Assembly (NCBI RefSeq): GCF_010993745.1
Contig: NZ_WOTN01000002.1
Location: forward strand, 1,054,001 to 1,118,000
Reading direction: 5' to 3'
From: Fodinicola acaciae
GTDB lineage: Bacteria; Actinomycetota; Actinomycetes; Mycobacteriales; HKI-0501
DNA length: 64,000 bases
Shown piece after piece: positions 7,601 to 27,074 of this stretch. The notes below the pieces were generated by a model, which searched no databases, was not told the origin of the DNA, and was given only the letters and a program-made list of their open reading frames with translations. A program made the translations under genes and the position numbers. How positions within the stretch are numbered: the first letter of the stretch is position 1; each line of letters starts with the position of its first letter.

Positions 7601-8418
7601 AACTCGCCTCCAATAGAGGCAATTCCCCGGCGAAAGCGCTTGAAGCGAGCAACGGTCCTGTTCATATCATGCGTAGCACTGACCTTCACGGCCTGTCACT
7701 CGTGTTCACTCTCGACTCGGCAAATGGTACGTCCGCTGCTGACGTGCGTTGGAGCGCCATCGCCATTCTTGATGACACAGCTGACGCAATGGATGCCGAC
7801 GACTATCGGCTGCGTTGGCGTTCCTGGCTCTACTGGTCGAACCTGCTGCAGTTCCTCGGCTATGCCGGAGGTGACGGGATCCAGCTGGCCACAAGCAGTG
7901 CCGCCGGCTATCCGGTCGAAGTCCTTGCCGTATGCGGTGGCGTCGGCGAGCTCGGATCCTTTGTCGACAAGGTTAAGCCGCGAAGTCCGGCTGGGCCGGC
8001 GGGTGGGTCGAAGCGCCGACTATCGGAGGTCGCGAGTATTTCGGCCAGCGCCGAGCCCGTGTTGCGTAGCCTCGTTCGGGACTCCCGTTGGGACAAGGAA
8101 ATCTTGCCCATCCTTGAAGTGGATGAGCCCGACTCTGAGCTCACTGAGCTCGCGAGGGAACTCGCCGCGCAGGGCAAGCAGGCACCGGTCTTCGGCTACG
8201 AGCTCGGCGAACGAGGCTGGCAGGTGGACTTTGGTTGGGAAGTCTTGAAAGTCGCTGTGGTTCCGAAGGTTCACGAGAGTCCGGACGAAGAAGCGCGCAA
8301 GCGCGACGAAGCGTACGAAGAAGCAGGGTGGACGGTCCGAACAGCCGCCGACTGGCTGGACGACTTCGACATGCTTCTCCAGCTGCTTCCCGACGCGGAA
8401 GGGACTGTATCCCCATGA
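1684..8418 (+). CDS. Giant DEAD/DEAH-type helicase with DUF1998 (DruE/DISARM-like defence helicase), 2244 aa
   Basis: The ATG at 1684 is chosen because it overlaps the stop of the upstream gene (ATGA). Superfamily 2 motifs are clear: Walker A TTGTGSGKTEAF near residue 100, Walker B VVVDEFHTYDG near 223 (DEFH in place of DEAH), motif III SATLA near 267, and motif VI QQVGRAGRR near 1110. The roughly 840-residue gap between motifs III and VI carries putative zinc ribbons (CRECGRSG, CPACGEH, CPVCFWEQ). Another ribbon, CQDCGYVRT...CPRC, follows at about 1400, and the DUF1998-type cysteine cluster CPCQDEGRRACHRCLHRY lies near 1690. Helicase plus DUF1998 in one very long chain is the layout of DruE; DISARM splits it into DrmA and DrmB. 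The last ~400 residues are unrecognised. The likely role is DNA translocation or unwinding during anti-phage defence. Confidence 0.8.
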   Translation: MRPTLEAQGLKESLLQYLSTTYALTDEGARESLHRFLGDETAGMFRGPFLRIRAPFVTADASWRDSLDWRPDNWTPYAHQAAAFARLTSAHDHTPQPTLVTTGTGSGKTEAFLYPVLDHCIREKAAGRDGIKAVILYPMNALAADQAQRLNDLLVEHQELARLRSGLYIGEKAATTYEKVYTNRSDMWLSPPDILLTNYKMLDMLLQRSYDAPLWTDADLRYVVVDEFHTYDGAQGTDVAMLLRRLAAAVGASEPGRPLGRICPVATSATLASGRSQDDQTNLLEVATQIFGTEFTADAVIGEDRQSVEEFIPTEGFDPLLPMPLPEQLAALPDPSKNPDAAADLVEAVTGERGLDPFELGKKLKKHVLTSAVLHSLTDGVRTNAEILNRMWRANAQSWVQTITRQPDVAATALARFVALLSIARDPASKAEHPRPFVHVEVHQWARSVSRLVRGVQPWPEAEFRWDSPGATDLQSSIHARTTPVTVATSGQPANLFLPAIYCRECGRSGWAVFSPESDDQEVEFDTHKTRLASTGRDKVRVRNLIAATNHEAREVFTTAPVTGRSDTGALGQGAGGALMVLDGLRHRLRPPDPGNDYSPQGEPRLAARDSTFVLVNLGPTANTAASQDWCPACGEHNAIRYLGTGAAALAAACVTQLFTGGELDPELGEEKTLMFNDSVQDAAHRAGFVASRSYTFSLRALFKKHLFEEDQTPLNDLIADVVAATTDPQTLRAVVPTDLHDLRGVSKLLSGQGGGRNLPTWRLVGERLAFEALMEFGFRSRNGRTLELTRTAAAHVRIPDAELAIELVKATHLEPTKADVPLIMQDDARYLAFLRVFLERLRTRGAVKHQWLANYLREAGTSRYHIWGGRPEGMRAFPRGIAAPIFLINQPKAGSEFDFATGRLSWYERWTQRCLELPREMVPDFWNRLLPQLATAGVLSVATPNDSSVRIYGLQPGNIGIQLLTDDAVNVAFVRCPVCFWEQTVHPTLLDQWHGQPCPSYRCRAGRLIAGDRPEELGVHHRDRDYRNDYYRHLYRKAGTYQVITAEHTGMLSRAERERVEAAFRHGTGFRDPNVLSCTPTLEMGIDIGDLSAVVLAALPRRPANYAQQVGRAGRRTGNAFLLTIPDRRRRDLYFLEQPQEMIAGQIIPPGCYLSAIEILRRQYLAHLLDLAARGRLIRGDGIPLRALPSHAPALFGPSGYLRDLVELAVAQGDRLVEDFLGLFPTGVTDEAKADLHAFATRGLRGKVEEAERAWRDAEEVLRTRLKLIDEAHDELHDSDPEQLQQKKELDGERRAVSKKLTGLGLTLAQNAMCDLGLLPNYALIDAVTTLNATLYWPEVNERTGKNWYTSALRSYSRPQRFALSELAPGNTFYVNGYKHEIGGLEIGTAARPQWRNWRFCQDCGYVRTENAVDDRSPCPRCNSTRIADDGSCLHKVVEPSIVTSRDKREDARIGDDRDDRDQRLFSVIDAVDIPLEAIDPGTSWRHATQTFGVDYCRTTVIRRVNVGEARFDRQVEDDLAGQSVRLSPFYVCTGCGAATADGRPVFDHHPDALNSSAARNPQLKHHLPWCRLRRGKSPESVPQEPVLLAHELRTEALRILLPAVTVLVEEKVHSFRAALRLGVDKHFGGDPQHLDTTLASMPDAASGERRYFLVLYDRLPGGTGYLHRLTGADAMKATLLEARRVLLNCPCQDEGRRACHRCLHRYTDERYQDIVSRREALEILNDLLGPIDERGNVLDDTWVTDKVPTTDLIGLDGQVESDLEARFLAALRQWVTTDGTAALDEDGRASGYLRFADSAGIVSWRLTAQRSHGYTRTDFTFERTDGPRQTVTVYVDGYNFHATGERNRVATDGNKRNQLRADGGIIFQVTWTDLDLFENRKTDAEPVWPPYRGNAQNQAKDVYEQLGGRRADLADAVFVNPIETLLAYLRQPDGAIWARGAKALVSGLMTSASPIAQGVNRTGARQALQAELASNRGNSPAKALEASNGPVHIMRSTDLHGLSLVFTLDSANGTSAADVRWSAIAILDDTADAMDADDYRLRWRSWLYWSNLLQFLGYAGGDGIQLATSSAAGYPVEVLAVCGGVGELGSFVDKVKPRSPAGPAGGSKRRLSEVASISASAEPVLRSLVRDSRWDKEILPILEVDEPDSELTELARELAAQGKQAPVFGYELGERGWQVDFGWEVLKVAVVPKVHESPDEEARKRDEAYEEAGWTVRTAADWLDDFDMLLQLLPDAEGTVSP

Positions 8419-10703: not shown

Positions 10704-10817
10704 TCCGCAAAGAGGCACCAAGACCTACACGCACGCCCGAACGGACCATTTCGCTAGATGGCGGTCCCAGGCAAGATGATCGGAATGACGAACGCTGGGG
10801 AGAAAGCGCAAGTGGCC

Positions 10818-12673: not shown

Positions 12674-13735
12674 ATGGCCTATTTTCTCGGCGCTGCATTC
12701 GTTGTCGCAGCTGACGTTGCGATTGACGGCGTGATGCACATGCGTTCGGTTGCCAGGCAGAATCGCGCGATCGCGCTCTGGAATTCGCCGCTGAGCCGGC
12801 TCGGCCGCTGTGGCATCTACAGTCTCAGGGCGACGACAGCAGTCGAGGAGGCCTTGACGGAGATATACGAGATCGAGCCGTACGGCTGGACGTACACCAA
12901 CGGGCTCTACTTCGCCGGAAGCCGCGTTCCTGAGCGAATCGTGGTGTTCGCCTCGGCGGCGGTGGCGGTCATCGATGTCATCTTGTATGAGGACTACGCC
13001 TTTGCGGTGCGATACGTGGATGAGGCGGCTCTGGAGCTCACGGACCGCCTGTGTCTTCCTCGGATTCCCGTTTTTGGCTTCGTCTGTCGCGCGGGCCTCG
13101 ATGAGGAGCCGCGTTATCTCCCTGCGGCCTCGGGGCGCCCGGTGGGGGTGACTGGCCGGCCGTGGCTTCCAGGCCTCCTGCGGGCTCGTCTTGGGGACAG
13201 CGATGAGGGCTCGTGCCTTCCTGATCACTTCGAGCCTGCCTTTCAAGCCGCCTCATGGGCGTATGAGCAGCAGTCCAATCTTTTTTGGGACATGTTGCGT
13301 GAGTTTCCACATTGGTGGACGATCATGAATCTTCGCCTCGACGATGAGCAAGATGAGACCGTGGATCTCGTCTGCGCTGGCCCTAACGCGGTCTTCGCGA
13401 TAGACGTGTCCAACGTGGATCCTGACGGTAGCGTTAAGCGGATCTCACGACACATTCATCGGCTCCGCGCCTATTTGCCCTGGGCAAATTTGGTTCCAGT
13501 CATCATCACTGACTCGGTGCGGCGAATGGAGTTTGGCCCGCACGTCGATACTGCCGGCAACAAGATCGCCTGGATTAACCCGGACTGCTTCACCGAGTTC
13601 GCCCGGAAGGTTCGGCTCCGCGGGCTGAGTGCAGCCGAGATCGCGTTTCTCAACGCACCTGCTCCAGGGTGGAGGCGGACGGTCGGCTTCGGTCCCGATG
13701 GGCCTGAGGTGAGCTGGGGCTGGACCGACGAATGA
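12674..13735 (+). CDS. NERD-like (restriction-endonuclease-fold) hypothetical protein, 353 aa
   Basis: A GGGGAG ribosome site at 12661 sits just upstream of two adjacent ATGs (12671, 12674); the second gives better spacing. The N-terminus (MAYFLGAAFVVAADVAIDG) is hydrophobic. Around residues 195-290 the order of elements recalls a NERD domain: FWDMLREFPHWWTIMNLRLDD, then TVDLVCAGPNAVFAIDVSN and a helix plus VPVIITDS. In active NERD nucleases the second strand ends ExK or similar; here it reads DVS, so catalysis may be lost. This is fold-level inference only. The gene precedes the pseudokinase-helicase operon by 116 bp on the same strand, so it may belong to it or be an independent defence gene. 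Confidence 0.65.
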   Translation: MAYFLGAAFVVAADVAIDGVMHMRSVARQNRAIALWNSPLSRLGRCGIYSLRATTAVEEALTEIYEIEPYGWTYTNGLYFAGSRVPERIVVFASAAVAVIDVILYEDYAFAVRYVDEAALELTDRLCLPRIPVFGFVCRAGLDEEPRYLPAASGRPVGVTGRPWLPGLLRARLGDSDEGSCLPDHFEPAFQAASWAYEQQSNLFWDMLREFPHWWTIMNLRLDDEQDETVDLVCAGPNAVFAIDVSNVDPDGSVKRISRHIHRLRAYLPWANLVPVIITDSVRRMEFGPHVDTAGNKIAWINPDCFTEFARKVRLRGLSAAEIAFLNAPAPGWRRTVGFGPDGPEVSWGWTDE

Positions 13736-13851
13736 ACGATCCCGCAAGGCGTGCCGCGCAAGTGGGCGACAAGGATTGACGATTTGTATCCGTCATTGCG
13801 ATCGGGCCGCTATTCTGCCCTGTTCGGTCAACCCGATCTCTTAGGTGAGTC

Positions 13852-15273
13852 ATGAATGAAGAGTTGTCAGCACTGGTGGACGCCTCGCCGAACTTTCGTT
13901 TCATCGCTGAGCCGGAGCTGCTGTTAGCGGGCGACGCCGCGCTCGCTGAGCGATACGTGGACTCCGATCCGGACGGTGCCATGTTCAAGGCCCGCCACTT
14001 CGGCGAGACGCTTGCGAAGATTCTCGTCCGGCAAGCGGCGATCCAATATCCGGAAAAGGCTAACCAGTTCGGTCGAGTCGCCGCGCTGGTCAACGAAGGA
14101 GTGATCCCGGGGCGCCTTCGGCCGGTCTTCGACACCCTTCGTAGCGAGGGAAACGAAGCCGTTCACGGTTTCTCCGGCGACAGGCAGAAGGCAAGGACGT
14201 TGGTGAAGGCGTGTCATCGGCTCGCTGTGTGGTGGTACGAGAGACAAAGCGGCAAGCCGCATCACCACCCGTTTCAGCCTCCGCAGGCAGAAGAGAGCAC
14301 GTCGCTGCGGGACCTGTTTGAAAAAGTGGAAGAGCAACTCCAATCGCTGCAGACTGTGTTCGACGGCGCCGTTGGTCGGCCCGAGCCGAGGATCGTCATC
14401 AAGACGGCTCAACCGGATGCGCACGACTGGCGCGGCGGCTCGACTGTCGTCTGTGGACAGCGGTCGTACCTTGTCCACCACCCGGTACAGACGATGGAAG
14501 CCGATGACCGGTCCTGGAAGCTGATGCAAGCACGCGCTCACAGCCTCGATTCCCACGCTAACCAGGTTTGGTTGCGCGGTCTGCTCATCGCATCAGGCAG
14601 CCGAGGACAGGTGGCCGAGATGGTCGACGGGCTGGCTGCACAAGCCTCATATTTGACCGATGCACGCCACCGAAATCGTTCGGCGGCAGGTTCTTCGCTG
14701 CACAAGGACGGCGATCTGCACGTTCTGGTGACCGCACTGCCGACGGGGTCGAGCTGGACCGAGGTGTTTGGGCCTGGAGACTGCCCGCTCGACCCGCTCG
14801 TACTCCCGCGGGTGCTGGAGGTCCTCGTCGCGGTGGCGGAGGTGCTTGCCAACCTGCACCGCGCTGGCCAAGGGCATCGTGCCTTGGACGGCGAGTCGAT
14901 CCTGGTATCCAAGACTGGGAGTAAGGGTGCGTTGCGTGACCTCGGCCTGGCGTGGTGGCCGCGGCTGACTCACGAGGGCCGGCCGTATCAGGCTCCCGAG
15001 CAGCAGGCGATTGCTCGTGGGCTGCCCGGACCAGCAACGGACGTGTTTCAACTCGCGACGCTGCTTCAGCATGCGTGCGCGGGGTATCGGCCCACTGCGG
15101 GCATGACGATCGCGCTCAAGGCGTTCATCTCAAATTTCCCGGAGCGGCTCGACGAGCTGCTGGGACGGGCTCTTGATCCGAATCCGTCGAACCGCCCGGA
15201 CATCGCCACTTTTGCTGCGGAACTGAGGCTTGGAAAACAGCACCTTGTCACGGAGGCAAACGCATGGCCGTAG
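13852..15273 (+). CDS. DUF4145-like domain fused to a pseudokinase, 473 aa
   Basis: The ATG at 13852 follows AGGTGAG at proper spacing. Residues 1-135 resemble DUF4145, a helical module found in restriction subunits: FRFIAEPELLLAGDAALAER, ARHFGETLAKIL and LRSEGNEAVHGF. A coiled segment near 155-175 links to a protein-kinase-like C-terminal half. The catalytic loop near 342 reads HRALDGESIL where active kinases have HRDLKPEN: the catalytic Asp is Ala and the metal-binding Asn is Ser. The DFG position reads DLG (RDLGLAWW, near 364), and YQAPEQQ (near 381) is a canonical activation-segment end. It is therefore a probable pseudokinase acting as scaffold or sensor. Its stop overlaps the helicase start by 10 bases, so the two are translationally coupled. 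Confidence 0.75.
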   Translation: MNEELSALVDASPNFRFIAEPELLLAGDAALAERYVDSDPDGAMFKARHFGETLAKILVRQAAIQYPEKANQFGRVAALVNEGVIPGRLRPVFDTLRSEGNEAVHGFSGDRQKARTLVKACHRLAVWWYERQSGKPHHHPFQPPQAEESTSLRDLFEKVEEQLQSLQTVFDGAVGRPEPRIVIKTAQPDAHDWRGGSTVVCGQRSYLVHHPVQTMEADDRSWKLMQARAHSLDSHANQVWLRGLLIASGSRGQVAEMVDGLAAQASYLTDARHRNRSAAGSSLHKDGDLHVLVTALPTGSSWTEVFGPGDCPLDPLVLPRVLEVLVAVAEVLANLHRAGQGHRALDGESILVSKTGSKGALRDLGLAWWPRLTHEGRPYQAPEQQAIARGLPGPATDVFQLATLLQHACAGYRPTAGMTIALKAFISNFPERLDELLGRALDPNPSNRPDIATFAAELRLGKQHLVTEANAWP

Positions 15274-18251
15274 GGGAGGTCGCGGTCGGCGGCCCGATCA
15301 CGCTCATCTACTCGAACAGATTCCTGACGGACATAGACAACCGGGTCACGCCGTTCGTCCAGGAGATCAGCCAGCTGGCCGGGATGGGGCAGCTGCCGAT
15401 CACCTTGGAGGTGATGGATCGTGATCCTGGCTGGCGTATGGCCGTCTATTCCAGCCGATACGTGGCATGGTTGTATCCGACCAAAGGCGGCGATGTCTAC
15501 AATCTTGGCCACGCCGCGCGGCGGCAGTTCCGGGACGAGGACCGTCTGGTCAAGGGCGCCCTGCTGTTGCGTTGTCCGTACCAGCTTCGGTTGTTCCCTA
15601 ACCTACCCAGCTTCAACCAAGCAGTGCGAGCGGGGCATACGCCGCGCACGTCGTCCCATGCGGACCTGCTTTGGCGGGCGTGGCATGGCCTTCCGGCCAT
15701 GGACGGCAAGCGCGCGCGACCGCCGTCGTTGCTAACACCTCATACCGACTATCTGGATCTGCTGGATACGGTGGTCGAGGCGAGCCGCCAGATCGAGACT
15801 GACCGGCAGACGTCCATGCCACCGCAGCATTATGTCGCTCGCGAGGCCGCCAAGGAGAAGCGCTATTCGGCACGCGGTGTCTACCGTTTCCGCCTGGCTG
15901 GGCGCGGGGAGCTGACCGCGAACACGATGGTCTGCCTTGGGGAGTACGCCGAAGCGCGGGGCAGGGTGATCCGCGCCGATGGCAACACCGCGACTGTCCG
16001 GTTCGAGCCCGGCACAGATTACGACCGTATCCCGGCTCAGGGAACGCTGAAGATTCTTCTGAGCGACCGGGTCTTTCGTGCGCAAAAGGACGCGATCGCG
16101 GTGCTGCGCAACGGGCAGTCGAGCAACCCGAGACTGCTGGACAACCTGGTCTCGACTACCTTCCTGCCGTACCAGCCCACAGCGTCCGGCACGCCGAAGC
16201 CGTCCCTCGACCTCGATCCCGACCAGCTGGAGGCATTCCGGCGCGCGCTCACGGTGCCGGATGTGCTGTGCGTTCTTGGTCCACCCGGCGCGGGCAAGAC
16301 CACCACCATCGTCGAGGTGGTGCAGGCCAGTGTGGCCCTTGGTCGCCGAGTCCTGATCACGTCGCATACCCACCGCGCGGTGGACAACGTGCTGGAAAAC
16401 CTGCCCTCGGACGTCAACGCGGTCCGGATCGGCAACGAGGACAACATGAGCAGCCGGGTGAAGGCGATGTCCGCGGAGAGCCGGGTCGAGGAGGTACGCG
16501 CTGGAATCGTTGCTGGCTCAGGCCTTTTCGACACGCTCCAGGAGGTGGCGCGGCAACGACCGTTGCTGGATAGGTATCTCAGCCATCTCTCATCGAATCT
16601 CGACGCGGTGGAGGCGGCGCAGCGCGAGCTGGTCGGCATCACGCCGCCCCTTGCCGAGGCGGTCAGGCGGGCCAGCGCCTCGATCCAGCCGCAGCTTCGC
16701 CGGGCCGAGGTGATGCTGGCGCGGCAGCAGTCTGTAGTCGTCAAACAGGACTCCGTTGCGGCGCGCCGCCGCCAACGGCTCAGTGCCGCGGAGTCAAGAG
16801 CCGCCTCGGGCTCCGCGACTGCTTTTGTCCACCGCTGGGTCGCCGGCTGGCAACGCGGTCGGCTCGCCCGGTTGGGGCAATTGTTACCGACTGCGCGTAC
16901 GGCGCTGGAAGCGGCTGAGTCTGCCGCTGCATCCCTGCGGGACCAGGCCGAGGCGATGGCGGCGCACGATCCGAGGGTCGTCGAGCTGATCGCGCGGCGC
17001 GACACCGCCAAGCGCAAGCTGGAGGGCGGATGGCCGGATATGGAGCGGATCGGTGCGCTGATCGAGCAGATGCTGCGGCCGGCGATCTCGATCGCGCCGC
17101 CGCTACGGCACGAAGTGGTGGACTGGGCCGAGTTTCACCGCCGATGCGTTGCGGGGCTTGGGCTCCTGGAGAACCGGCGTGCACTGCTCGCCGAATGGCG
17201 GGAACGGATCAGCGACTTGAGTGCGGGGCTCGAGCGCGAGATCGCCCGCTATTCCGATGTCGTCGGTGCCACCTGCGTTGGCACGGATACTTCGGCGCTG
17301 ATTTCGGGCCTTGAGTTCGATCTTGCGATCGTCGACGAGGCCGGGCAAATCTCCACTCCGAATCTTCTGATACCCCTCGTACGCTCCGAACGCGCGATGC
17401 TGGTCGGCGATCACAAGCAGTTGCCGCCATTCCTGGACGAGGAAGTCAGGAAGTGGGCCGATAGTCTGATCGGGCAGCAGACCTCGCTGACCGCGCAGGG
17501 TGTCGCCGATGTGAGTGCGCTGCTGGCCAAGAGTGGCTTCGAGTTGCTGTTCCCGCGGGCTCCACGGTCGAACGCGGTGTGGCTGAAGACTCAGCGGCGG
17601 ATGCCCGAGCAGATAGCGAAGTTTGTTTCTGACACGTTCTACTCTGGACAACTGCGTACCGCGCATCGCGGTGTCGCGCCGAATTCCTTCTTCCTATCTC
17701 CGTTCGCAATGGTGGACACCTCTGACCGGCCGACCGGCGAACGCAAGGAAACCGCTATGCGTCAACTAAAAGGTGCACAGCGGCACGGCTACCGCAACGA
17801 CCTCGAGGCCGCGATCATCGTCAGCCTGCTGCAAGCCCTCGCCGGGCAGTATCGCGACTGGGCGGTCATCGTGCCGTTCAACGCACAGAAAGAGCTGCTG
17901 ATCGAGCGCCTCTCGGCCGCGAGGAGCACCTCAACGCAGGTCGCTGACCATGTTGGGAGCGTAGATTCGTTCCAGGGAGGGGAACGGGATCTCATCATCT
18001 TCGGGTTCACCCGCAGCAATCCGAACGGCGATATCGGATTCCTCAAGGAGTTGCGGCGGTTCAATGTCGCTATTACCCGCGCAAAGCAGCAGTTGGTACT
18101 CGTCGGCGACCTCATGACCTTGTGCAACGCGAAGAATCGAGATTTCCAGGACACCATGGTTGCCATGACCGAGCACCTTCGACGGGTTGGTCACCTGCGC
18201 CGGTCGGGGGACGTGATGGCGGCGCTTTCGACCGAGAGCCGGCGTGCGTGA
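15264..18251 (+). CDS. UPF1/DNA2-like superfamily 1 helicase with long N-terminal domain and coiled-coil insertion, 995 aa
   Basis: The ATG at 15264 overlaps the upstream stop by 10 bases. Residues 1-320 form an unrecognised domain with beta-rich stretches. Helicase motifs: Walker A GPPGAGKTTTIVEVVQ near 339, Walker B IVDEAGQISTPNL near 690, GDHKQLPPF near 715, QRRMPEQIAKFVSDTF near 778, SVDSFQGGERDLIIF near 900 and RRFNVAITRAKQQLVLVGD near 932. All key residues are present, including Q of DEAGQ and the FQG...GER and TRAKQ motifs. Between residues ~420 and 660 lies an Ala/Arg/Glu-rich stretch, probably coiled coil, in place of the usual 1B insertion. Such helicases act 5'-3' on DNA or RNA. 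It is the motor of the candidate pseudokinase-helicase system. Confidence 0.9.
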   Translation: MAVGEVAVGGPITLIYSNRFLTDIDNRVTPFVQEISQLAGMGQLPITLEVMDRDPGWRMAVYSSRYVAWLYPTKGGDVYNLGHAARRQFRDEDRLVKGALLLRCPYQLRLFPNLPSFNQAVRAGHTPRTSSHADLLWRAWHGLPAMDGKRARPPSLLTPHTDYLDLLDTVVEASRQIETDRQTSMPPQHYVAREAAKEKRYSARGVYRFRLAGRGELTANTMVCLGEYAEARGRVIRADGNTATVRFEPGTDYDRIPAQGTLKILLSDRVFRAQKDAIAVLRNGQSSNPRLLDNLVSTTFLPYQPTASGTPKPSLDLDPDQLEAFRRALTVPDVLCVLGPPGAGKTTTIVEVVQASVALGRRVLITSHTHRAVDNVLENLPSDVNAVRIGNEDNMSSRVKAMSAESRVEEVRAGIVAGSGLFDTLQEVARQRPLLDRYLSHLSSNLDAVEAAQRELVGITPPLAEAVRRASASIQPQLRRAEVMLARQQSVVVKQDSVAARRRQRLSAAESRAASGSATAFVHRWVAGWQRGRLARLGQLLPTARTALEAAESAAASLRDQAEAMAAHDPRVVELIARRDTAKRKLEGGWPDMERIGALIEQMLRPAISIAPPLRHEVVDWAEFHRRCVAGLGLLENRRALLAEWRERISDLSAGLEREIARYSDVVGATCVGTDTSALISGLEFDLAIVDEAGQISTPNLLIPLVRSERAMLVGDHKQLPPFLDEEVRKWADSLIGQQTSLTAQGVADVSALLAKSGFELLFPRAPRSNAVWLKTQRRMPEQIAKFVSDTFYSGQLRTAHRGVAPNSFFLSPFAMVDTSDRPTGERKETAMRQLKGAQRHGYRNDLEAAIIVSLLQALAGQYRDWAVIVPFNAQKELLIERLSAARSTSTQVADHVGSVDSFQGGERDLIIFGFTRSNPNGDIGFLKELRRFNVAITRAKQQLVLVGDLMTLCNAKNRDFQDTMVAMTEHLRRVGHLRRSGDVMAALSTESRRA

Positions 18252-19414
18252 TGAGGCGAATCATCTATCCGGCCACTCGAGCCGTGGAGAGTGTGAAGGC
18301 ACTCCCGGGCATTACGCCCATCAGGATGTTCCCGGTGCTGTGGCCGCTGTGGCAGGTCGATACCAGCGCTGAGATCTATGACCGGCAGGAATTCGAGATA
18401 GTCGACCACTTCGTGGTCCGCGCCATCGAAGAGGCGCAGATCCGCGAGAGCGGCGAACTCGCCCGTTTCCTCAACGTGCCCGCAGGCCTGATTGACCGGT
18501 GCCTGGCCTTCCTCAGCCTGATTGGCCATGTCACTACGTACGGAAAATTGCTCCAGCTGACTGAGCTCGGTCAGCGGTCGGCTCAGGATGGTGTGCGGTA
18601 CGTGGCCTCCAAGAGCAGGCAGACCATTCTGATCGAGCGCCAGTCGGGGTCGCCGCTGCCGCGCGAGTATTACGATGCCAACGTCCCGGTGCTCGACACA
18701 CCAGAGATTGAGGAGGGGCAACTAGCTGACCGTACCCGCTTTCTGCGAGTCTTCACCACCGCCCCGTATCGGCCTGAAGTGCTGCGGTGGCTGGAAAGCA
18801 ACCCGGAACGGGTCAAGTACAACCTGCCCAGTCAGCTGCGCAACCTGACCGATGAGGGGCACCGCGAGGCTTTCCTGCCCAGCTACCTGATTGAGACGGC
18901 CGATCACAGGATTCTGGCCTTCACCAACGCTTCCGAGCAGCGTGACGAGTTCTTGGAGCGGCTCTGCACTCGTACGTCAATCGAAAATCTTATCGAGGCC
19001 AGGGGAGTCAGCCGCCCAGAGCAGATCTGGCGCAAGTGGTTGGCGCAGTCGAAAACCTTCGGCAAGGGTCGGCTTCAAGAGTCCGCAGGGGGCTGGCGGG
19101 TGGTCCTTGACGCCGACGCCTTCGGTGATTCGCCGAAGCTTCCGTTCCGTCGCCTGGGGTCGTACCAGTTCTACGACAACCACTTCATTCAGGTGTGGTG
19201 CGCCGATACGGCCGTGCGCCGGCGCGCGCTGATGGAGCGCTCGCTGGGCATCGCCACTCTTCCGGAGGTCACGACCGAACGGGATCTCCAGAAGAGGATC
19301 CGGCAGCTGGCGGGCAGTCTTCGGGTTGCCGAGTTCGCCGTCGCCGACCTGCGCGCGCACGCCGCGAGCACCGGCGACCAGGACCGGCTTCATCGGCTAG
19401 AAAACCTCACGTAG
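18251..19414 (+). CDS. Unrecognised protein of the pseudokinase-helicase operon, possible winged-helix, 387 aa
   Basis: The start is the ATG whose first base is the last base of the helicase stop (TGATG), giving MRRIIYPATRAVESVKALPG. A longer in-frame start at 18122 lies inside the helicase gene and is less likely. Residues ~35-105 look like a winged-helix module: FEIVDHFVVRAIEEAQIRES, RFLNVPAGLIDRCLAFLSLI, then a TELGQ turn. The middle contains basic and aromatic stretches (RYVASKSRQTILIER); the C-terminal ~60 residues are predicted helical or coiled. No catalytic motif stands out. Its tight coupling to the helicase suggests a subunit for substrate recognition. The gene faces the Wadjet operon tail-to-tail across 233 bp. 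Confidence 0.7.
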   Translation: MRRIIYPATRAVESVKALPGITPIRMFPVLWPLWQVDTSAEIYDRQEFEIVDHFVVRAIEEAQIRESGELARFLNVPAGLIDRCLAFLSLIGHVTTYGKLLQLTELGQRSAQDGVRYVASKSRQTILIERQSGSPLPREYYDANVPVLDTPEIEEGQLADRTRFLRVFTTAPYRPEVLRWLESNPERVKYNLPSQLRNLTDEGHREAFLPSYLIETADHRILAFTNASEQRDEFLERLCTRTSIENLIEARGVSRPEQIWRKWLAQSKTFGKGRLQESAGGWRVVLDADAFGDSPKLPFRRLGSYQFYDNHFIQVWCADTAVRRRALMERSLGIATLPEVTTERDLQKRIRQLAGSLRVAEFAVADLRAHAASTGDQDRLHRLENLT

Positions 19415-19626: not shown

Positions 19627-19648
19627 GTGCCGGTGCCGGTGCCGGTGC
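19627..19648. repeat. Short tandem repeat GTGCCG x3.7 at the 3' edge of jetD
   Basis: Three full GTGCCG units and a partial fourth abut the jetD stop in the 233-bp convergent gap between the helicase operon and Wadjet. I see no clear terminator or gene in this gap. Confidence 0.7.
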
Positions 19649-20838
19649 TAGCGGCTACCGCTCAACGCGGCCAAGAGAGTCTCTTGGACGTATGTCCACG
19701 GTATTCGTTCCTGTTCCAGTCGCAGCGGGTTGCCGTCGTTCCTGAGCGCGGCGAGCGTTTCGCGCTCTGGGTTGGTGAGCGTGCGGTCGGGTGGGTCGAC
19801 GCGACCGGTGGGGTCGTTGACGGCGAGGCTGATGTACTTATCGAGCGTGTTGGAGTCCATCATGATGGAGGTGATGTCGAGAATGCGGGTTCGTGCCCGG
19901 GATAGCAGGGTGAATCCGGCGCGGTCGAGGTCACCCCAGTACCAGGTCTGTGCTGCGGATACCCACGGGATGGCGGAAAGCGCGCCGAGGTAGTTGCCGA
20001 GGGAATGTATGACGATCAGGCCGGGTAGATCGGCGATCGGTAGTGCTGATTCTTTGTTCTCGACGATGAGTACCTGGTGAGGACGCAGCGGGAGGTTGGC
20101 GATCTCTTCCAGCGGTGCGTTGAGGTGGCGAATGCCGGCGAGTCGGTGCTGGTCGCATGGATCGGTGAGGATGACGTTGATGGTAATTGGCAGCGGTCGT
20201 AGGCCGAGCAGATCAAGGTCGCGGTCTGTTAGCTCAACGTGTCCGATCGCCGTTTCTGGCGGTGCGCTCTGATCGCTGCTGATGCGCAGGAGGGCATGGA
20301 CGAGTCCGCGGTGACGCGCGAGCCACTTGGTGTGCATGCCGACGACGGGAACCTGGCGGATGGTCAGTTCTGACCGCGGGTTTTCGTTGAACCATCGGAT
20401 GACGCGCAGGAGCAGCGCGAAGTCGTCGTCGCTGAGGTTGGTGATGGCCTGGAGATGCGGCTTGAACTGTTCGCGCGGACCACCAAGGTCGACCAGCCGC
20501 GGATAGCGACGTGTCGCCGTGTGCCAATGCGCTTGGGTCTCAGGATCGACGGCTGCCAAGGCGTTGGCGTCGGGCAGGTCGAGGTGGGTGTAGATCTGCT
20601 GTGGTCCGATCACTGTCCGGCGAGTCGCGGTGCGTAGGCGGATCGTCGGATGGGTTTCCACCCAGGAGCGCCACGTTCGCAACCATGCTGCGACCGTCGT
20701 TGCGTCACGCGCGATTGTCTGAGCATTCGGAGGTGCGAGCGGGAAGGAGAGGCCGTCGGGAGGCGATGTGAGCCAGTCGCGCCAGGAATATTCATAGCGC
20801 GTTCGGATCTGGCCCAGAATCTCGTCCGGGGTACGCAT
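19648..20838 (-). CDS. jetD: Wadjet protein JetD (DUF3322/DUF2220), Toprim-type DNA nuclease, 396 aa
   Basis: JetD is the nuclease of the Wadjet plasmid-restriction complex; it cuts circular DNA that the SMC-like JetABC motor has extruded. The N-terminal ~190 residues match the DUF3322 region (WLRTWRSWVETHP, YPRLVDLGG, VPVVGMHTKWLARHRGLV). The C-terminal half is the Toprim-like DUF2220 part, with the catalytic Glu in VENKES (E260) and the DLD pair in YWGDLDRAGF (D303, D305), so the active site looks intact. The ATG overlaps the jetC stop by one base, and the gene is the last of the jetABCD operon. The length fits the family. Confidence 0.95.
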   Translation of the reverse strand: MRTPDEILGQIRTRYEYSWRDWLTSPPDGLSFPLAPPNAQTIARDATTVAAWLRTWRSWVETHPTIRLRTATRRTVIGPQQIYTHLDLPDANALAAVDPETQAHWHTATRRYPRLVDLGGPREQFKPHLQAITNLSDDDFALLLRVIRWFNENPRSELTIRQVPVVGMHTKWLARHRGLVHALLRISSDQSAPPETAIGHVELTDRDLDLLGLRPLPITINVILTDPCDQHRLAGIRHLNAPLEEIANLPLRPHQVLIVENKESALPIADLPGLIVIHSLGNYLGALSAIPWVSAAQTWYWGDLDRAGFTLLSRARTRILDITSIMMDSNTLDKYISLAVNDPTGRVDPPDRTLTNPERETLAALRNDGNPLRLEQERIPWTYVQETLLAALSGSR

Positions 20839-23800
20839 CAGGACGCTCTCTCGTCATCGAGTTGGAGCGCTTCTTCGATGGTCATCGGAAATATTCGCAC
20901 GCTGTCACGGTCGTCCGGGTCGGAGTTGATGTACGCGACGGTCTCAACGTAGTCCTCGAACGCGGTTGCCTTTTCGCGCGGCGCGGCGACGATGAGCTGG
21001 AATCCGAGAGCGCGAAGTGCGGCCAGGGATCGTCCGGTGTAGTCGCTGTCGGCTTTGACGAAACCCTCGTCGAGGAGGATGGACGCGTAGGTGGGTGGGC
21101 CGTCATCGCCTTCGCCGAGCCGGTAGCGCAGCGCAGCGCCGAGGATGAACGCGATCAGCTCTTGGCCTTCTCCGCCGCTCATCCCCGAGACGCCTTCGTG
21201 AATGAGCTCCGTTCCGTCAGTCTTTGTCTCGATGGCTCGGAATTCCACCTGCTCGCGGGCGTCGAACACGCGTCGTCGCCAGGCTTCACCAGTGCGGGAG
21301 AGGTCATCCAGACGCTCGAGGCTGCGGTGGAGGCGGACAAACGACTTCTCGATCTGTTCGGCATCGCGTGCGGGGTCCTGCGCGACGGTATTGCTGGTGT
21401 AGCGGCTGATGATATCTCGAAAATCCTTGTGGTCTGAATTGGGCCGGTCGGAGGAGTCGATGGCCAACGTCGAGCCTTCCCGGAAAGAGACTCCTTTCAG
21501 GACCGTGTTGATCGGTTTCAGGCCATGTCGGATCTGGCGTCCGTCCTCCTCGATCTGGACCAGGACAGCGTTCAGCTGGCGGTTCATATCCTGGTCAACT
21601 TTCTGCAGCCATTTTTGTTTGGCGCGAGGCAGATCGTCGTCAAGGAGCTGCTGATGGATCGCCAGCAACGCGGGCAGGCTATCGATCGTTCCATCGATCT
21701 CGCGTTCGGTGCGATCGTCGATGTTCCGGTAAGCCTGAATCGTAGCGAGCACGGATTGCTCGTGTGCTTCGCGGTCCTTTCGGTGTTGCTCTATTTGACC
21801 ACCGAGATCAACTTCGGCGCCGCGTCGGCTGGCGTTGACGGCTGTGTGGTCGGGGCTGGTGGGTACCTTGAAGGGCAGGCTTGCGAGGGCTCCGCGTTCG
21901 TCGTCATCAAGCGGCGGCTGGCTGTCGACCAGCGTGGTCGCGGTGTCCTGGATCTCGATGAGGCGCTCCCACAGTCGGTCGAGGTCTTTTTGCCGTTCTT
22001 CAAGGCTTGCGGCAGCCGCGCTCGTCTTGCCGGCGTTGGTACGTGCCTGTTCCAACTGCTCTCGCAGTTGGCGTGCCTGCGGCGTGTCGGCACGGGCCAG
22101 CTCTTCCTCTAGCTCATGCACTCGTTCTTCGAGCGGTGTCGTATCGATGCTTGACCACGTTATTTCCTCGCCCAGATTCGTGAGACGTTTGATGCGGTCG
22201 CGGCATACGTCGCGTGCGTCGGTCGCCGCCTCAGCCTTGGACTCGAGCGAGGGCCGTTCGCGCATGAGGGAGGCGATCTGGTCGGCCAGTTCGGCGCGCA
22301 GTTGTTGGTTGTCCCAGCCGATCCACTTGTAGGGGCTCCTACGGTCGTTCTTGATGAACCTGCCGCGGGCGCCGGTGCGCATGCCGGCGCGTGTGACTGC
22401 TCCGATGGTCGCAGCGGGTCGGTGGGACTGCAGCTCGGAGTCGCGCTCTACGCACCAGTATGAGAAGTGCTCGATGAGCTCCTTGCTGAGCCAGTCGGCG
22501 TAGGGCGACTCGGCGATATCGAGAAGAGCGGGGATCGTGTTGTCGATAGGCCGGGCGCCTCTTCGGGTGTCCGGTACGCCGACCAGGGTGATTCTCTCGC
22601 CCATGTCGTGGTCGTTGACATAGCGACGTACGGCGGGCAGGTCCCGTTCGGCGACCAGGAGGTCGCTGGCGAGTCCGCCCAGGACGCTGAGCACCGCGGG
22701 CTCCCAACGCCGATGCTCGGGTTTGACCTGAATGAGCTCGCCGGCGTAAGAGAGGCGGTCGGTGGGAACGCCGGTGTCGCGGGCGATGCGGGTGCGGACG
22801 GCGTCGGCGGACGGCGGTATGTTGCTCCGGCGCTGCTTGAGCTGTTCGATCTCACCAGCAAGAGTCTGGATGCGGCGCTTCAGATTGACAAACTCCGCCT
22901 GCTTGTCGTACGCAGACTGATCAAGGTCATGCTTTTCGTTTTCGAGACCGTTGCGGACATGCTTCATGCTCTCGTGTAACAGGGTCAGATCCCCTTGAGA
23001 GGTGGGAAGGCGCATCTCGAACTCTTCTAATCGGCGCGCCAAAGCCTCGCGGTGCTTCTCAAGTGCGTCGAGGTCCTTTTTCTCCCTCTCCAGCTGAACG
23101 GTCAGCGTTTGGGTCGGATCGCCACCGGCGGCGGTCAACCTGTTCAGGATGTCGTCAAATCTGTTCTGAGCCGTATTGTCGTCCCGCTTTGCTTCCTGCA
23201 GCTGTTCGTCCAACTCGGCGCGGTCGAGCCTGTTGGTGTCGATCTCGTGGTCTGCCCACTCGTAGAGCTTTTCGGCATGCCAGATCGCCAACCGCGACGG
23301 CTGATCGGTAGCGGGAAGGTCAAGTAGATGTTGCTTGGCGACATAGTCATTCCCTGCCGTCCTGTATTTCTCGGCGAGGTCGGGCAGGCGGGTGAGCGTG
23401 CTCAACCGCTGCCGGGCGTACTCGAACTCGTGGTAGAGCCTGGAGGCCTCTCGGTAGGCGTCCAGTGCTGTGTCCCATCGGGTCAGCGCAAGCGGCTCGG
23501 TGAGGACGAACTCCTTGAATAGGGTGTTGATGTTGAAGATGCCTTTCGATGCATGGGCGCGGCGCAGCAGATCCATCGCCAGCTGCTGGGACTCGTCGGT
23601 GTGTCCCATGTGCATGACGGTGCGCATCTTGGCGTGGATCCGGCTCTGCGACGGGTCGATAATGTCACCGCGCGCAGCGTCGATCAGCCCGCCGAGGGTT
23701 GCCTTCGATATTGGCGGGGCTCCAGCTCGTACGCTGGACAGTCCGTTTAGTCGCGTCAGGTCGAAAAAGCCGTGTACGAATCCGTACACGGTGCTTGCCG

Positions 23801-24236
23801 CGATCGCGTCGGCACCGATCGTGTCCGGGCCAACCCAGGCGAGGCGAAGAGCGGTTACTCGGCGGCCAGCCTCATCGGCCCATGTGATCGCGGCGCCGCT
23901 GGCGAATCCTCGCCCACCAGGTGGCCGTTTGTAGCTTGCCGTGCCGGAACGTTTGTTCTCGTCTCGCCGTTGGTCGGTCTTCCCACGCGCATAGCTGTAA
24001 ACCGTGCGCTCTCGCTTCTTCCCCTTGTCATCCCGGGCCGCCTGATTGAACTCCTGCGGATTGGGCATGATCACCGACGCCATCGCGTCAAGCAGCTGCG
24101 ACTTCCCGCGACCTGACGGACCCAGGATCGCGGTACCGGCGCGGCCCACATGCATCACCTGAAGACCGGCGTACCCGCCCCAGTTCAGGATCTGGACCGT
24201 ATCGATGCGGAACTGCCCGCGAGCGTCGCCTACCAT
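20838..24236 (-). CDS. jetC: Wadjet protein JetC, SMC/MukB-like ATPase, 1132 aa
   Basis: JetC is the MukB-like motor of Wadjet. The head is split as in SMC proteins: Walker A GPSGRGKSQLLDAMASV at residues 39-55; the ABC signature SGGEGQELIAFILGAALR from 1020; Walker B with catalytic Glu in ILLDEGF at about 1053-1059. Between them runs a long coiled coil (roughly 270-470 and 650-1000) interrupted near 480-620 by a globular hinge-like region with LIQVKPEHRRWEPAVLSVL. All ATPase motifs are intact. The gap to jetB is 2 bp and the jetD ATG overlaps its stop, so expression is coupled. It assembles with JetA and JetB on DNA in the cytoplasm. Confidence 0.96.
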   Translation of the reverse strand: MVGDARGQFRIDTVQILNWGGYAGLQVMHVGRAGTAILGPSGRGKSQLLDAMASVIMPNPQEFNQAARDDKGKKRERTVYSYARGKTDQRRDENKRSGTASYKRPPGGRGFASGAAITWADEAGRRVTALRLAWVGPDTIGADAIAASTVYGFVHGFFDLTRLNGLSSVRAGAPPISKATLGGLIDAARGDIIDPSQSRIHAKMRTVMHMGHTDESQQLAMDLLRRAHASKGIFNINTLFKEFVLTEPLALTRWDTALDAYREASRLYHEFEYARQRLSTLTRLPDLAEKYRTAGNDYVAKQHLLDLPATDQPSRLAIWHAEKLYEWADHEIDTNRLDRAELDEQLQEAKRDDNTAQNRFDDILNRLTAAGGDPTQTLTVQLEREKKDLDALEKHREALARRLEEFEMRLPTSQGDLTLLHESMKHVRNGLENEKHDLDQSAYDKQAEFVNLKRRIQTLAGEIEQLKQRRSNIPPSADAVRTRIARDTGVPTDRLSYAGELIQVKPEHRRWEPAVLSVLGGLASDLLVAERDLPAVRRYVNDHDMGERITLVGVPDTRRGARPIDNTIPALLDIAESPYADWLSKELIEHFSYWCVERDSELQSHRPAATIGAVTRAGMRTGARGRFIKNDRRSPYKWIGWDNQQLRAELADQIASLMRERPSLESKAEAATDARDVCRDRIKRLTNLGEEITWSSIDTTPLEERVHELEEELARADTPQARQLREQLEQARTNAGKTSAAAASLEERQKDLDRLWERLIEIQDTATTLVDSQPPLDDDERGALASLPFKVPTSPDHTAVNASRRGAEVDLGGQIEQHRKDREAHEQSVLATIQAYRNIDDRTEREIDGTIDSLPALLAIHQQLLDDDLPRAKQKWLQKVDQDMNRQLNAVLVQIEEDGRQIRHGLKPINTVLKGVSFREGSTLAIDSSDRPNSDHKDFRDIISRYTSNTVAQDPARDAEQIEKSFVRLHRSLERLDDLSRTGEAWRRRVFDAREQVEFRAIETKTDGTELIHEGVSGMSGGEGQELIAFILGAALRYRLGEGDDGPPTYASILLDEGFVKADSDYTGRSLAALRALGFQLIVAAPREKATAFEDYVETVAYINSDPDDRDSVRIFPMTIEEALQLDDERAS

Positions 24237-24238
24237 GC

Positions 24239-24913
24239 CTACGCCTCCCTCTCCACCCTGTCGTTCTCAAGATCCGGCGGCGCTGAGCCGACCATGTCCA
24301 GCTCGCGGCGGTACGCGGCCTCGAGACGAAGGACCTCGTCGACACCGATCAGCGGAACGACCACGGGCGAGACCGTGAACAGATAGTCGGCGTCCGGGTC
24401 GACGGTAAGCAGTTGCAGATCTGCGAGAGCGCGGATCGCCGCGTTCACGCGGCTCTGAAAACGTGCCCCGTCGCCATCACCCTCCTCCCGGTAGGCGCGC
24501 AGAAATTCGTCGACCTGCGATCGGTTAACCACCACCGGCCCGTCAGCGGCGTCGGTGTAGGCATATTCTTGACGCAGGAACAGCAACACAAAGGACGCGT
24601 CGCGAGACAGCGGCTTCTCACGTCGCAACAGCCGCGGGACGTCCTCCTCAACCTCCTGCCGCTTGAACGCGACCTCCAGGTCCCTATCGATGACGAGCCG
24701 TAGGAACAGGTCCGCGAGCCGTTCACGGATCTCCTCCTCATACGCGAGGAGCGCATCCCATACCTGCCTCTGCCGGGCCCGCGAGACGAACCGGGACCTG
24801 AGCAGCGACACCAAAGCCCGCCTGGCGTCCTCCGGCAGCCCCGGCTGGTCAGCGTCGGCTCCATCCAGCCCATCGACATCTGAGGACTCCTCGTTGTCCC
24901 ATTCCGCGTTCAC
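24239..24913 (-). CDS. jetB: Wadjet protein JetB (DUF4194, MukE-like), 224 aa
   Basis: This is the small winged-helix subunit that bridges JetA and the JetC heads, comparable to MukE. The sequence has an acidic N-terminus (NAEWDNEESSDVDGLDGADAD), then a conserved helical core, LLRSRFVSRARQRQVWDALL, and the segment LLFLRQEYAYTDAADGPVVV typical of DUF4194. The start is the ATG overlapping the jetA stop (ATGA, 4 bases). Length and operon position are as expected for a type I Wadjet locus. Confidence 0.93.
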   Translation of the reverse strand: MNAEWDNEESSDVDGLDGADADQPGLPEDARRALVSLLRSRFVSRARQRQVWDALLAYEEEIRERLADLFLRLVIDRDLEVAFKRQEVEEDVPRLLRREKPLSRDASFVLLFLRQEYAYTDAADGPVVVNRSQVDEFLRAYREEGDGDGARFQSRVNAAIRALADLQLLTVDPDADYLFTVSPVVVPLIGVDEVLRLEAAYRRELDMVGSAPPDLENDRVEREA

Positions 24914-26376: not shown

Positions 26377-27074
26377 GGACCTCACCTCCCCGCTCAACGC
26401 GGCGAGCCAACGACGCTCTGGATGTCCTCGATCGCCTACGATCGAAAGAATCCTTCGCGACGCGATCGGCTCGCGTGAATATTCCAGTCGACAAAGCCTC
26501 CTGCGCTCACCGATACGGTACGGCGAAGGTGCGCCAAAACCGTGCCTGTCGGACCCGCATCGGCTGAACAGCCCGGCTAGCATCACCGACTGGCCATCGT
26601 CGCTCACCTGGACAGATCCTGGACAGATCAGATACATCGACCAAGACATCGCATCTGTAGGTCGGGCTGGTCGACCGTTATTGGCGATGAGTTTCACGAC
26701 GAGATCACCAGCAATCCAAGGGCGTTGACCACGATGCGCCCTTGAGCCCGGCGTCGGCGTCCTGGTGACCAAGGAGGCTCGGATGTACGACTGCGGCGCT
26801 GACGGCCCGCAGGGGTGAAACCTCATACGCCACGTAGCAGCCAAGGCCGTACCAGATCTCGCCCCTAGCATGCCGGCGCGCCTGATCGCAGGCGTTTGAG
26901 GGTCCTGTCTGCCCTAATCGTGCCGTCAGTTGTCCGCTTCGCATGGGAGTATTGGTGGGAGCAACTGGGAGCAGAACTGTGTCGAACCGGTCTTAACCGC
27001 CTTGAATGGCTCCCACGTGACCTGTGGAAACGGTGTTTGTGCTGGTCAAGGCCGATACATCGACTGGACTGGCA
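26377..27074. other. Gene-poor stretch between jetA and the ssrA fragment
   Basis: About 700 bp with no convincing gene on either strand. It must contain the jetA promoter (minus strand) and the inner edge of the island. A short direct repeat (TGGGAGCAACTGGGAGCAGAA) lies near 26956. I found no integrase or excisionase here; if the island once had an integrase at this end it is gone, or it sits at the other end outside the window. Confidence 0.6.

What the first reader, a model, noticed from the sequence alone, without database searches (positions are those of the whole stretch)
12674..19414. Candidate undescribed system: DUF4145-pseudokinase + UPF1-like helicase + coupled unknown protein
Three genes (13852-19414) overlap by 10 and 1 bases and sit between two recognisable defence loci. 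The first joins DUF4145 to a kinase fold whose HRD Asp is Ala and whose Asn is Ser; the second is a complete SF1 helicase with a long coiled-coil insertion and a 320-residue new N-terminal domain; the third has a winged-helix-like start and no known family. A NERD-like gene precedes them by 116 bp. I know of no named defence system with this composition; the set has a sensor/scaffold, a motor and possibly a nuclease-fold partner.
Basis: partly seen in the sequence, partly recalled or inferred. Interest (0 to 1): 0.85.

Follow-up and report, generated by a model that had tools for sequence, protein, structure and literature searches.

The report
Split Mokosh-like system with swappable effector
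Three overlapping bacterial genes form a rare, split relative of the Mokosh anti-phage system in which the kinase has lost its catalytic residues and carries an interchangeable front domain, which points to a dead-kinase hub that links a helicase motor to different weapons.

Summary
The trio is real: three overlapping genes, 13852-19414. It is related to a named system: the kinase-like half and helicase match MkoA, and the third protein's N-terminal part matches MkoB, of Mokosh type I. It fails that family's kinase and PLD features: the kinase is degenerate and in a separate gene, and the PLD motif is absent (0 of 26 third proteins, 8 of 10 MkoB). In 25 other loci analysed, the 24 that reach far enough upstream hold the same three genes in the same order. 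Of 25 kinase-like proteins, HRD Asp, beta-3 Lys and Asn each survive in 1, against 10 of 10 fused MkoA. In front of the pseudokinase sit different modules: Mrr-like nuclease 16, DUF4145/HEPN 2 (window included), SEFIR 2, TIR 1, PNP 1, hydrophobic 1, short leader 2. Nineteen of 20 split helicases form a clade apart from fused MkoA. Best reading: a helicase sensor and adaptor gate a pseudokinase that carries a swappable effector. The anatomy is well supported; mechanism and defence role are inferred. The NERD-like gene is not conserved with the trio.

The parts
13852..15273 (+). Gene 1 (PK), 473 aa: DUF4145 (HEPN superfamily) module at residues 32-120, then a pseudokinase at about 201-461 (beta-3 Lys to Arg, HRD to HRA, Asn to Ser, DFG Asp kept as DLG). 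Proposed effector or signal carrier.
15264..18251 (+). Gene 2 (HEL), 995 aa: UPF1/IGHMBP2-like SF1 helicase, the counterpart of MkoA's helicase part. Proposed nucleic-acid sensor and motor.
18251..19414 (+). Gene 3 (TRI), 387 aa: MkoB N-terminal domain (residues 9-136, winged helix 46-115) plus a C-terminal part without a PLD HxK motif. Proposed adaptor.
12674..13735 (+). NERD-like ORF 116 bp upstream, weak NERD match; a neighbour, not part of the conserved unit
1651..8418 (+). DruE-like DEAD helicase with MrfA Zn-binding (MZB) domain: flanking defence-type gene, not part of the unit
19648..26871 (-). Wadjet genes JetD, JetC, JetB and JetA (type I by model names): flanking defence system, not part of the unit

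Best explanation
The three genes are one operon-borne defence system, a split sister group of Mokosh type I. The SF1 helicase (gene 2) most likely senses or processes foreign nucleic acid. Gene 3, which keeps the MkoB N-terminal winged-helix domain but has no PLD motif, most likely acts as adaptor. Gene 1 is a pseudokinase hub that carries the output module at its N terminus: in relatives an Mrr-like nuclease, TIR, SEFIR or nucleoside-phosphorylase domain; here a DUF4145/HEPN domain. When the helicase engages its target, the signal would pass through the pseudokinase as a conformational or assembly switch rather than phosphorylation, and switch on the N-terminal module. Shown: the gene set, its conservation, homology to MkoA and MkoB, degradation of the kinase motifs, absence of the PLD motif, exchange of N-terminal modules. 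Inferred: sensing, physical complex, signal path, killing or interference, and defence itself. Whether the window's own DUF4145 module is catalytic is doubtful.
For: PADLOC: PK to MkoA 125-279 (2.7e-10), HEL to MkoA 521-1099 (2.4e-108), TRI to MkoB 7-174 (1.7e-10). hhalign: PK and MkoA kinase P 98.8, HEL and MkoA P 100, TRI and MkoB P 97.2. MkoA carries kinase and helicase in one chain, which links PK and HEL. PK, HEL and TRI lie in that order in 14 of 14 loci and in 20 of 20 named loci that reach far enough (10 loci are in both sets). In 18 other loci measured, with the starts I chose, gaps run from -4 to +80 bases and 14 of 18 PK-HEL junctions overlap by 1 or 4 bases. Motif loss in 25 split against 10 fused proteins. 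PLD motif 0 of 26 against 8 of 10. Modules: TIR_2 6.5e-31 and PNP_UDP_1 5.3e-32; SEFIR 7.7e-7, and 7.7e-4 below its cut-off; Mrr_cat at E up to 1 in 5 of 10 scanned, best 6e-4, and the motif FExM-GDxGID-WQxK in 16 of 16 Mrr-like modules and 0 of the 9 others. Helicase clade of 19 rows, support 100/99. Defence genes beside several relatives.
Against: No experiment shows defence. The window's DUF4145 module has no RX4-6H motif that is shared with its closest relative L049, so its own output may be non-catalytic. One relative (L069, Glycomyces) keeps an intact HRD, and two loci (L065, L066) have only a short leader and no fused module. The Mrr assignment is weak by Pfam score (best 20.4 bits against 21). 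One of the 20 split helicases (Chloroflexi, L068) groups with Azospirillum L072, which has a kinase gene with intact motifs by eye, so the dead kinase need not hold outside Actinomycetota. The system is rare: own genome only among 61, and 15 of 394 in the class, own genome included and one a weak partial hit. No match in viral contigs, and none for gene 3 in plasmids.
Confidence: 0.6

Rival explanations
1. Same system, but the N-terminal module is a recognition or assembly domain rather than the weapon. In the window the DUF4145 domain would bind nucleic acid or a partner, as at the N terminus of type I restriction HsdR, and the output would be the helicase itself or an unlinked nuclease, such as the NERD-like neighbour.
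For: The window's DUF4145 region matches the N terminus of HsdR (NCBIfam PRK11448 3.1e-26, below its whole-protein cut-off; PADLOC type I REase 8.8e-10). No RX4-6H motif shared with L049. PMC3710099 (passages) lists DUF4145 as fused to REase and helicase modules. Two relatives have no fused module. PMC10952713 (passage) lists NERD for Mokosh type I.
Against: The same slot holds TIR, PNP and Mrr-like domains in relatives, usual toxic effectors. No homolog of the NERD-like gene lies in the loci. PMC3710099's table gives the DUF4145 motif as mostly conserved (80%), so most family members are thought active.
Confidence: 0.22
2. A diverged but ordinary Mokosh type I system that still works by phosphorylation and RNA degradation, the kinase and PLD being present but unrecognised.
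For: All three proteins match MkoA or MkoB models. The DFG Asp is kept in 24 of 25 and L069 keeps HRD. Two of 10 MkoB of fused systems also lack the simple HxK pattern.
Against: Beta-3 Lys 1 of 25, HRD Asp 1 of 25, Asn 1 of 25. No HxK motif in 26 of 26 third proteins. TRI aligns with MkoB only over about 130 N-terminal residues.
Confidence: 0.1
3. Not a defence system: a cellular RNA- or DNA-processing trio that happens to lie in a variable island.
For: UPF1/IGHMBP2-like helicases also serve in RNA metabolism (relatives). No phage challenge has been done.
Against: Patchy distribution, exchange of TIR, SEFIR, PNP and Mrr modules, homology to a defence system, defence genes near several loci, and lower GC in the window's first 28 kb.
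Confidence: 0.08

Closest known systems
Mokosh type I (MkoA + MkoB)
   Same: Kinase fold, then COG1112/UPF1-like SF1 helicase, then an MkoB-type gene with the same N-terminal domain
   Different: Kinase and helicase are separate genes; kinase catalytic residues lost; variable module in front of the kinase; no PLD motif in the third gene; separate helicase clade for 19 of 20 rows
Mokosh type II (MkoC)
   Same: COG1112-type helicase (PADLOC MkoC 1.2e-35)
   Different: Type II is one gene with helicase and PLD (PMC11672841 and PMC10740426, passages); here three genes and no PLD motif
Azospirillum lipoferum plasmid locus L072 (unnamed intermediate)
   Same: Separate helicase followed by a third protein that aligns with TRI (hhalign P 96.8, E 2.2e-10) and lacks the PLD motif; helicase groups with the Chloroflexi one beside the split clade
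   Different: Has a further kinase gene with intact motifs by eye, and a first gene with a weak SpoIIE/PP2C match plus a kinase-like part
Type I restriction HsdR N terminus / DUF4145 (HEPN superfamily)
   Same: N-terminal module of gene 1
   Different: No HsdR nuclease or SF2 helicase in the chain; here joined to a pseudokinase
PADLOC candidate PDC-M16A
   Same: DUF4145 region, residues 13-166 (1.4e-19)
   Different: Only model positions 4-158 of 930 match

Membership tests
Mokosh type I | COG1112-type RNA helicase (definition from PMC11672841, passage) | tested here: met
   PADLOC MkoA 2.4e-108; hhalign P 100 over profile positions 132-974
Mokosh type I | Serine-threonine kinase domain with catalytic residues | tested here: not met
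   Kinase fold present but Lys, HRD Asp and Asn replaced in the window; each kept in only 1 of 25 split proteins, 10 of 10 in fused MkoA
Mokosh type I | Kinase and helicase in one protein, MkoA (as in the 10 fused loci fetched here) | tested here: not met
   Separate ORFs in the window and in the 24 other loci with both genes
Mokosh type I | MkoB N-terminal domain | tested here: met
   PADLOC MkoB 7-174, 1.7e-10; hhalign P 97.2
Mokosh type I | PLD nuclease in MkoB | tested here: not met
   HxK motif 0 of 26 third proteins, 8 of 10 MkoB; no Pfam match at E 1
Mokosh type I | Protection against phage | not testable with these tools
   needs an experiment
Mokosh type II | Helicase and PLD in one gene | tested here: not met
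   Three genes, no PLD motif
HEPN superfamily (DUF4145) | DUF4145 domain above the gathering score | tested here: met
   24.7 bits against 23.1; DUF4145 placed in HEPN by PMC3710099 (passages). The closest relative L049 gave no Pfam hit at E 0.05 though its first 190 residues are identical to the window's at 83 of 188 aligned places
HEPN superfamily (DUF4145) | RX4-6H catalytic motif | tested here: inconclusive
   Within residues 1-190 the window has R115-x6-H and R131-x5-H, L049 only R183-x6-H; none is shared, and the conserved GN(E/D)A(V/A)H has no Arg 5 to 7 before the His
Wadjet, Druantia | Core genes of these systems within the trio | tested here: not met
   No Jet or Dru model matches the trio proteins at E 0.1; these genes lie beside it

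The most novel reading that the evidence does not exclude
A distinct defence type, sister to Mokosh, built on a pseudokinase as a signal hub: a helicase sensor and winged-helix adaptor act through a dead kinase whose N terminus accepts interchangeable killing modules (TIR, SEFIR, Mrr nuclease, nucleoside phosphorylase, HEPN), a modular receptor logic like that of STAND/NLR immune proteins but with a pseudokinase in the place of the NTPase switch.
Probability: 0.45. Interest if true: 0.78.

Novelty: new variant of a known kind. Interest (0 to 1): 0.62.

Why it matters
In the passages I could read, Mokosh's mechanism is described from its domains. A natural variant in which the kinase has lost its catalytic residues, the PLD motif is gone and the front domain has been swapped several times suggests that the conserved core is helicase plus MkoB N-domain plus kinase fold, and that the kinase fold can work as a scaffold. 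It makes a clear test possible: exchange modules and see whether target range follows the helicase and outcome follows the module.

Tried and rejected
Undescribed system with no relatives: rejected, since PADLOC already matches each protein in part. NERD-like gene as fourth member of a conserved unit: rejected, no homolog by BLAST at E 1e-3 among ORFs of 80 aa or more in the 14 loci or the 21 (10 loci shared); none of three fused MkoA scanned shows NERD by Pfam at E 0.1 either, although PMC10952713 lists NERD for Mokosh type I (passage). Gene 3 as nuclease: no support; Foldseek and VIA-align found the winged helix, and the rest of the model was barely tested, so a known fold there is not excluded. 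Kinase and helicase as a recently broken MkoA: rejected, separate ORFs in 25 of 25 loci with both genes and a clade of their own for 19 of 20 helicases. Phage or plasmid carriage: the profile found nothing in viral contigs and gene 3 nothing in plasmids; the helicase matched 378 plasmid records, none over 80% of its length. The first genome-contig scan with one sequence found nothing; the profile scan found 21 loci. The phylum sample gave, besides the own genome, only four short partial matches, not followed. The MkoB family model matched 202 of 394 class genomes; many of the places listed there cover only its PLD part, so this count says little. The Mrr-like module and gene 3 found no convincing solved structure by sequence (two matches, best E 0.5, three matches, best E 0.08). 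The gene 1 model is good in the kinase half but poor in residues 1-100 (pLDDT 34-53 per ten residues), so the HEPN fold is not shown by structure. The L072 third protein was not found by BLAST and matches MkoB itself poorly (P 12.5), but matches the TRI profile. Literature: the listings (40 of 41 papers; titles and starts of abstracts) and the Mokosh passages of eight papers show no split or effector-swapped Mokosh. The original Mokosh paper is not held, and DefenseFinder's finer Mokosh type I subtypes, which I recall but saw in no call, could not be checked.

Rows dropped before counts: the weak G075 hit (77 aa) and the weak G335 hit; in the tree, 20 of 26 split loci were used (L025, L027, L028, L054, L061, L067 left out as near copies or frameshifted); L067 was left out (gene 3 broken) and L072 added, giving 26. 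L059 = L026 (gene 1), L067 = L033 (gene 3) and L027 and L054 (gene 2) look broken by frameshifts and were left as they are; L059's break lies before the DFG region and is its one missing DFG Asp. L102 (G835) was fetched, but its helicase runs off the contig, so it is in no count. The tree is rooted at its midpoint and several outgroup rows are long branches.
Full report
1. What is there. The window holds three overlapping genes on the + strand: gene 1 (PK) 13852-15273, gene 2 (HEL) 15264-18251, gene 3 (TRI) 18251-19414. PK has a DUF4145 domain (Pfam 2.5e-5) and a kinase-like half that Pfam does not report at E 1 but PADLOC (MkoA, 2.7e-10) and the structure model (best Foldseek match PknB, E 1e-9) show. 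HEL is an SF1 helicase closest by sequence in the PDB to SMUBP-2, DNA2 and UPF1, with the motifs GPPGAGKT, VDEAGQ, GDHKQLPP and DSFQGGE. TRI has no Pfam match at E 1; its model is confident (mean pLDDT 91.3) and starts with a winged helix.

2. What it resembles. All three proteins map onto Mokosh type I. PADLOC places PK on the kinase part of MkoA, HEL on the helicase part and TRI on the first third of MkoB. Profile-profile comparison with five fused MkoA and five MkoB proteins agrees: PK residues 201-461 with MkoA 6-259 (P 98.8, E 7e-17), HEL profile positions 132-974 with MkoA positions 397-1147 (P 100, E 1e-74), TRI residues 9-136 with MkoB 12-142 (P 97.2, E 4e-11).

3. It recurs as a unit. 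A search with TRI found matches in 15 of 394 genomes of the class, own genome included and one of them a weak 77-residue hit. The 13 remaining genomes gave 14 loci, and all 14 carry PK, HEL and TRI in this order, three of them with one gene split or cut short (L026, L027, L033). A profile search of named genomes gave 21 loci, in Actinoplanes, Dactylosporangium, Micromonospora, Streptosporangium, Acrocarpospora, Frankia, Pseudofrankia, Parafrankia, Saccharopolyspora, Saccharothrix, Actinophytocola, Glycomyces and a Chloroflexi MAG. Twenty of 21 reach far enough upstream and all 20 show the three genes in order. In 18 other loci measured, with the starts I chose, gaps run from -4 to +80 bases. 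In the family of Frankia 13 of 35 genomes match, one by a short piece only; in the family of G235, 5 of 249, two of them over nearly the whole profile; in a phylum sample 5 of 396, own genome included and four of them short pieces. The system is rare and patchy.

4. The kinase is degenerate in nearly all. In 25 gene 1 proteins the beta-3 Lys is kept in 1, the HRD Asp in 1 and the catalytic Asn in 1, while the DFG Asp is kept in 24; in 10 fused MkoA proteins all four are kept in 10 of 10. L069 (Glycomyces) is the one with an intact HRD. The third gene has no PLD HxK motif: 0 of 26 (25 split loci and the Azospirillum relative L072) against 8 of 10 MkoB.

5. The front of the pseudokinase is exchanged. 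Of 25 gene 1 proteins, 16 begin with an Mrr-like module: Mrr_cat is hit at E up to 1 by 5 of 10 members scanned, best 6e-4, just under the curated score; Glu33, Asp61, Gln75 and Lys77 are invariant in 10 of 10 aligned; the motif FExM-GDxGID-WQxK is in 16 of 16 and in none of the other 9 (the pattern was drawn from the alignment). One begins with TIR (TIR_2 6.5e-31, L023 = L057), one with a nucleoside-phosphorylase domain (PNP_UDP_1 5.3e-32, L032), two with SEFIR (7.7e-7, L063; 7.7e-4, under its cut-off, L064), two with DUF4145 (the window, and Actinoplanes L049 by 48.7% identity over the full length, though L049 itself gives no Pfam hit), one with a hydrophobic, helical-looking stretch (L069) and two with only a short leader (L065, L066), these three by eye. 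On the helicase tree 19 of 20 split rows, all from Actinomycetota, form one clade (100/99) apart from the fused MkoA clade (10 rows, 100/99); the Chloroflexi row and Azospirillum lie together beside the split clade. The DUF4145 pair and the TIR row are nested among Mrr-bearing rows, and seven states need at least six changes on that tree (my count by eye). Exchange of TIR, SEFIR, PNP and Mrr domains in one slot is what effectors of defence systems do (established knowledge), and it is the main ground for calling the slot an effector slot.

6. Mechanism. Inferred: the helicase detects or unwinds foreign nucleic acid, TRI adapts, and the pseudokinase passes a conformational signal to the N-terminal module. 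In the window that module is DUF4145, a HEPN-superfamily domain according to PMC3710099 (passages). No RX4-6H motif is shared between the window and L049, so I leave open whether it cuts RNA or serves as a binding domain. PMC11672841 (passage) defines Mokosh type I by helicase, PLD nuclease and kinase, and PMC11291487 (passage) states that Mokosh degrades viral transcripts; with no PLD motif that route cannot be assumed here.

7. Surroundings. Downstream lies a Wadjet set (JetD 1.4e-90, JetC 3e-212, JetB 5.8e-64, JetA 1.9e-143); upstream a DruE-like helicase (7.5e-94, in three stretches) and a protein that matches the C terminus of type IIG restriction enzymes (2.8e-56). GC is 0.57-0.65 in the first 28 kb against 0.635-0.723 further on. 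Relatives lie near DISARM genes (L061, and a DrmD-like helicase in L051), CRISPR I-E (L055), TerY (L050) and a type IIG enzyme (L069) (nine hand-picked neighbours scanned, one without a match, so this is no enrichment test).

8. Verdict. I found no description of it in the listings and passages I saw, but the founding Mokosh paper and DefenseFinder's models were not available.

Noticed in passing
L072:2546-10998 (Azospirillum lipoferum 4B plasmid): A related locus: a first gene with a weak SpoIIE/PP2C match and a kinase-like part, a second kinase gene with intact motifs by eye, a separate helicase and a PLD-less TRI-like gene (hhalign P 96.8), then a further gene: a possible intermediate between fused Mokosh I and the split form.
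   Followed up: partly
L073:4492-10185 and L103:4510-10155 (Agrobacterium and Aminobacter plasmids): Fused MkoA and an MkoB without the simple HxK pattern are followed by an annotated PP2C phosphatase gene, which suggests reversible phosphorylation in these two Mokosh I loci.
   Followed up: no
   Followed up: no
L063:4912-5577, L064:4912-5514 and L066:12111-12635: Separate SEFIR/TIR-domain genes on the opposite strand next to the trio; L066's own gene 1 lacks a fused module (Pfam hits for L063 and L066; L064 by eye).
   Followed up: partly
L056:12699-16052 (Frankia sp. R82): A TIR and TPR protein with a weak NTPase match (TIR_2 1.4e-19, 1117 aa) lies 1.5 kb downstream of the trio; no PADLOC match at 1e-10.
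   Followed up: no
window 10758-12089: A 443-aa ORF between the UvrD-like helicase and the NERD-like gene has no PADLOC match at 1e-3; its start looks PIN-like by eye.
   Followed up: no
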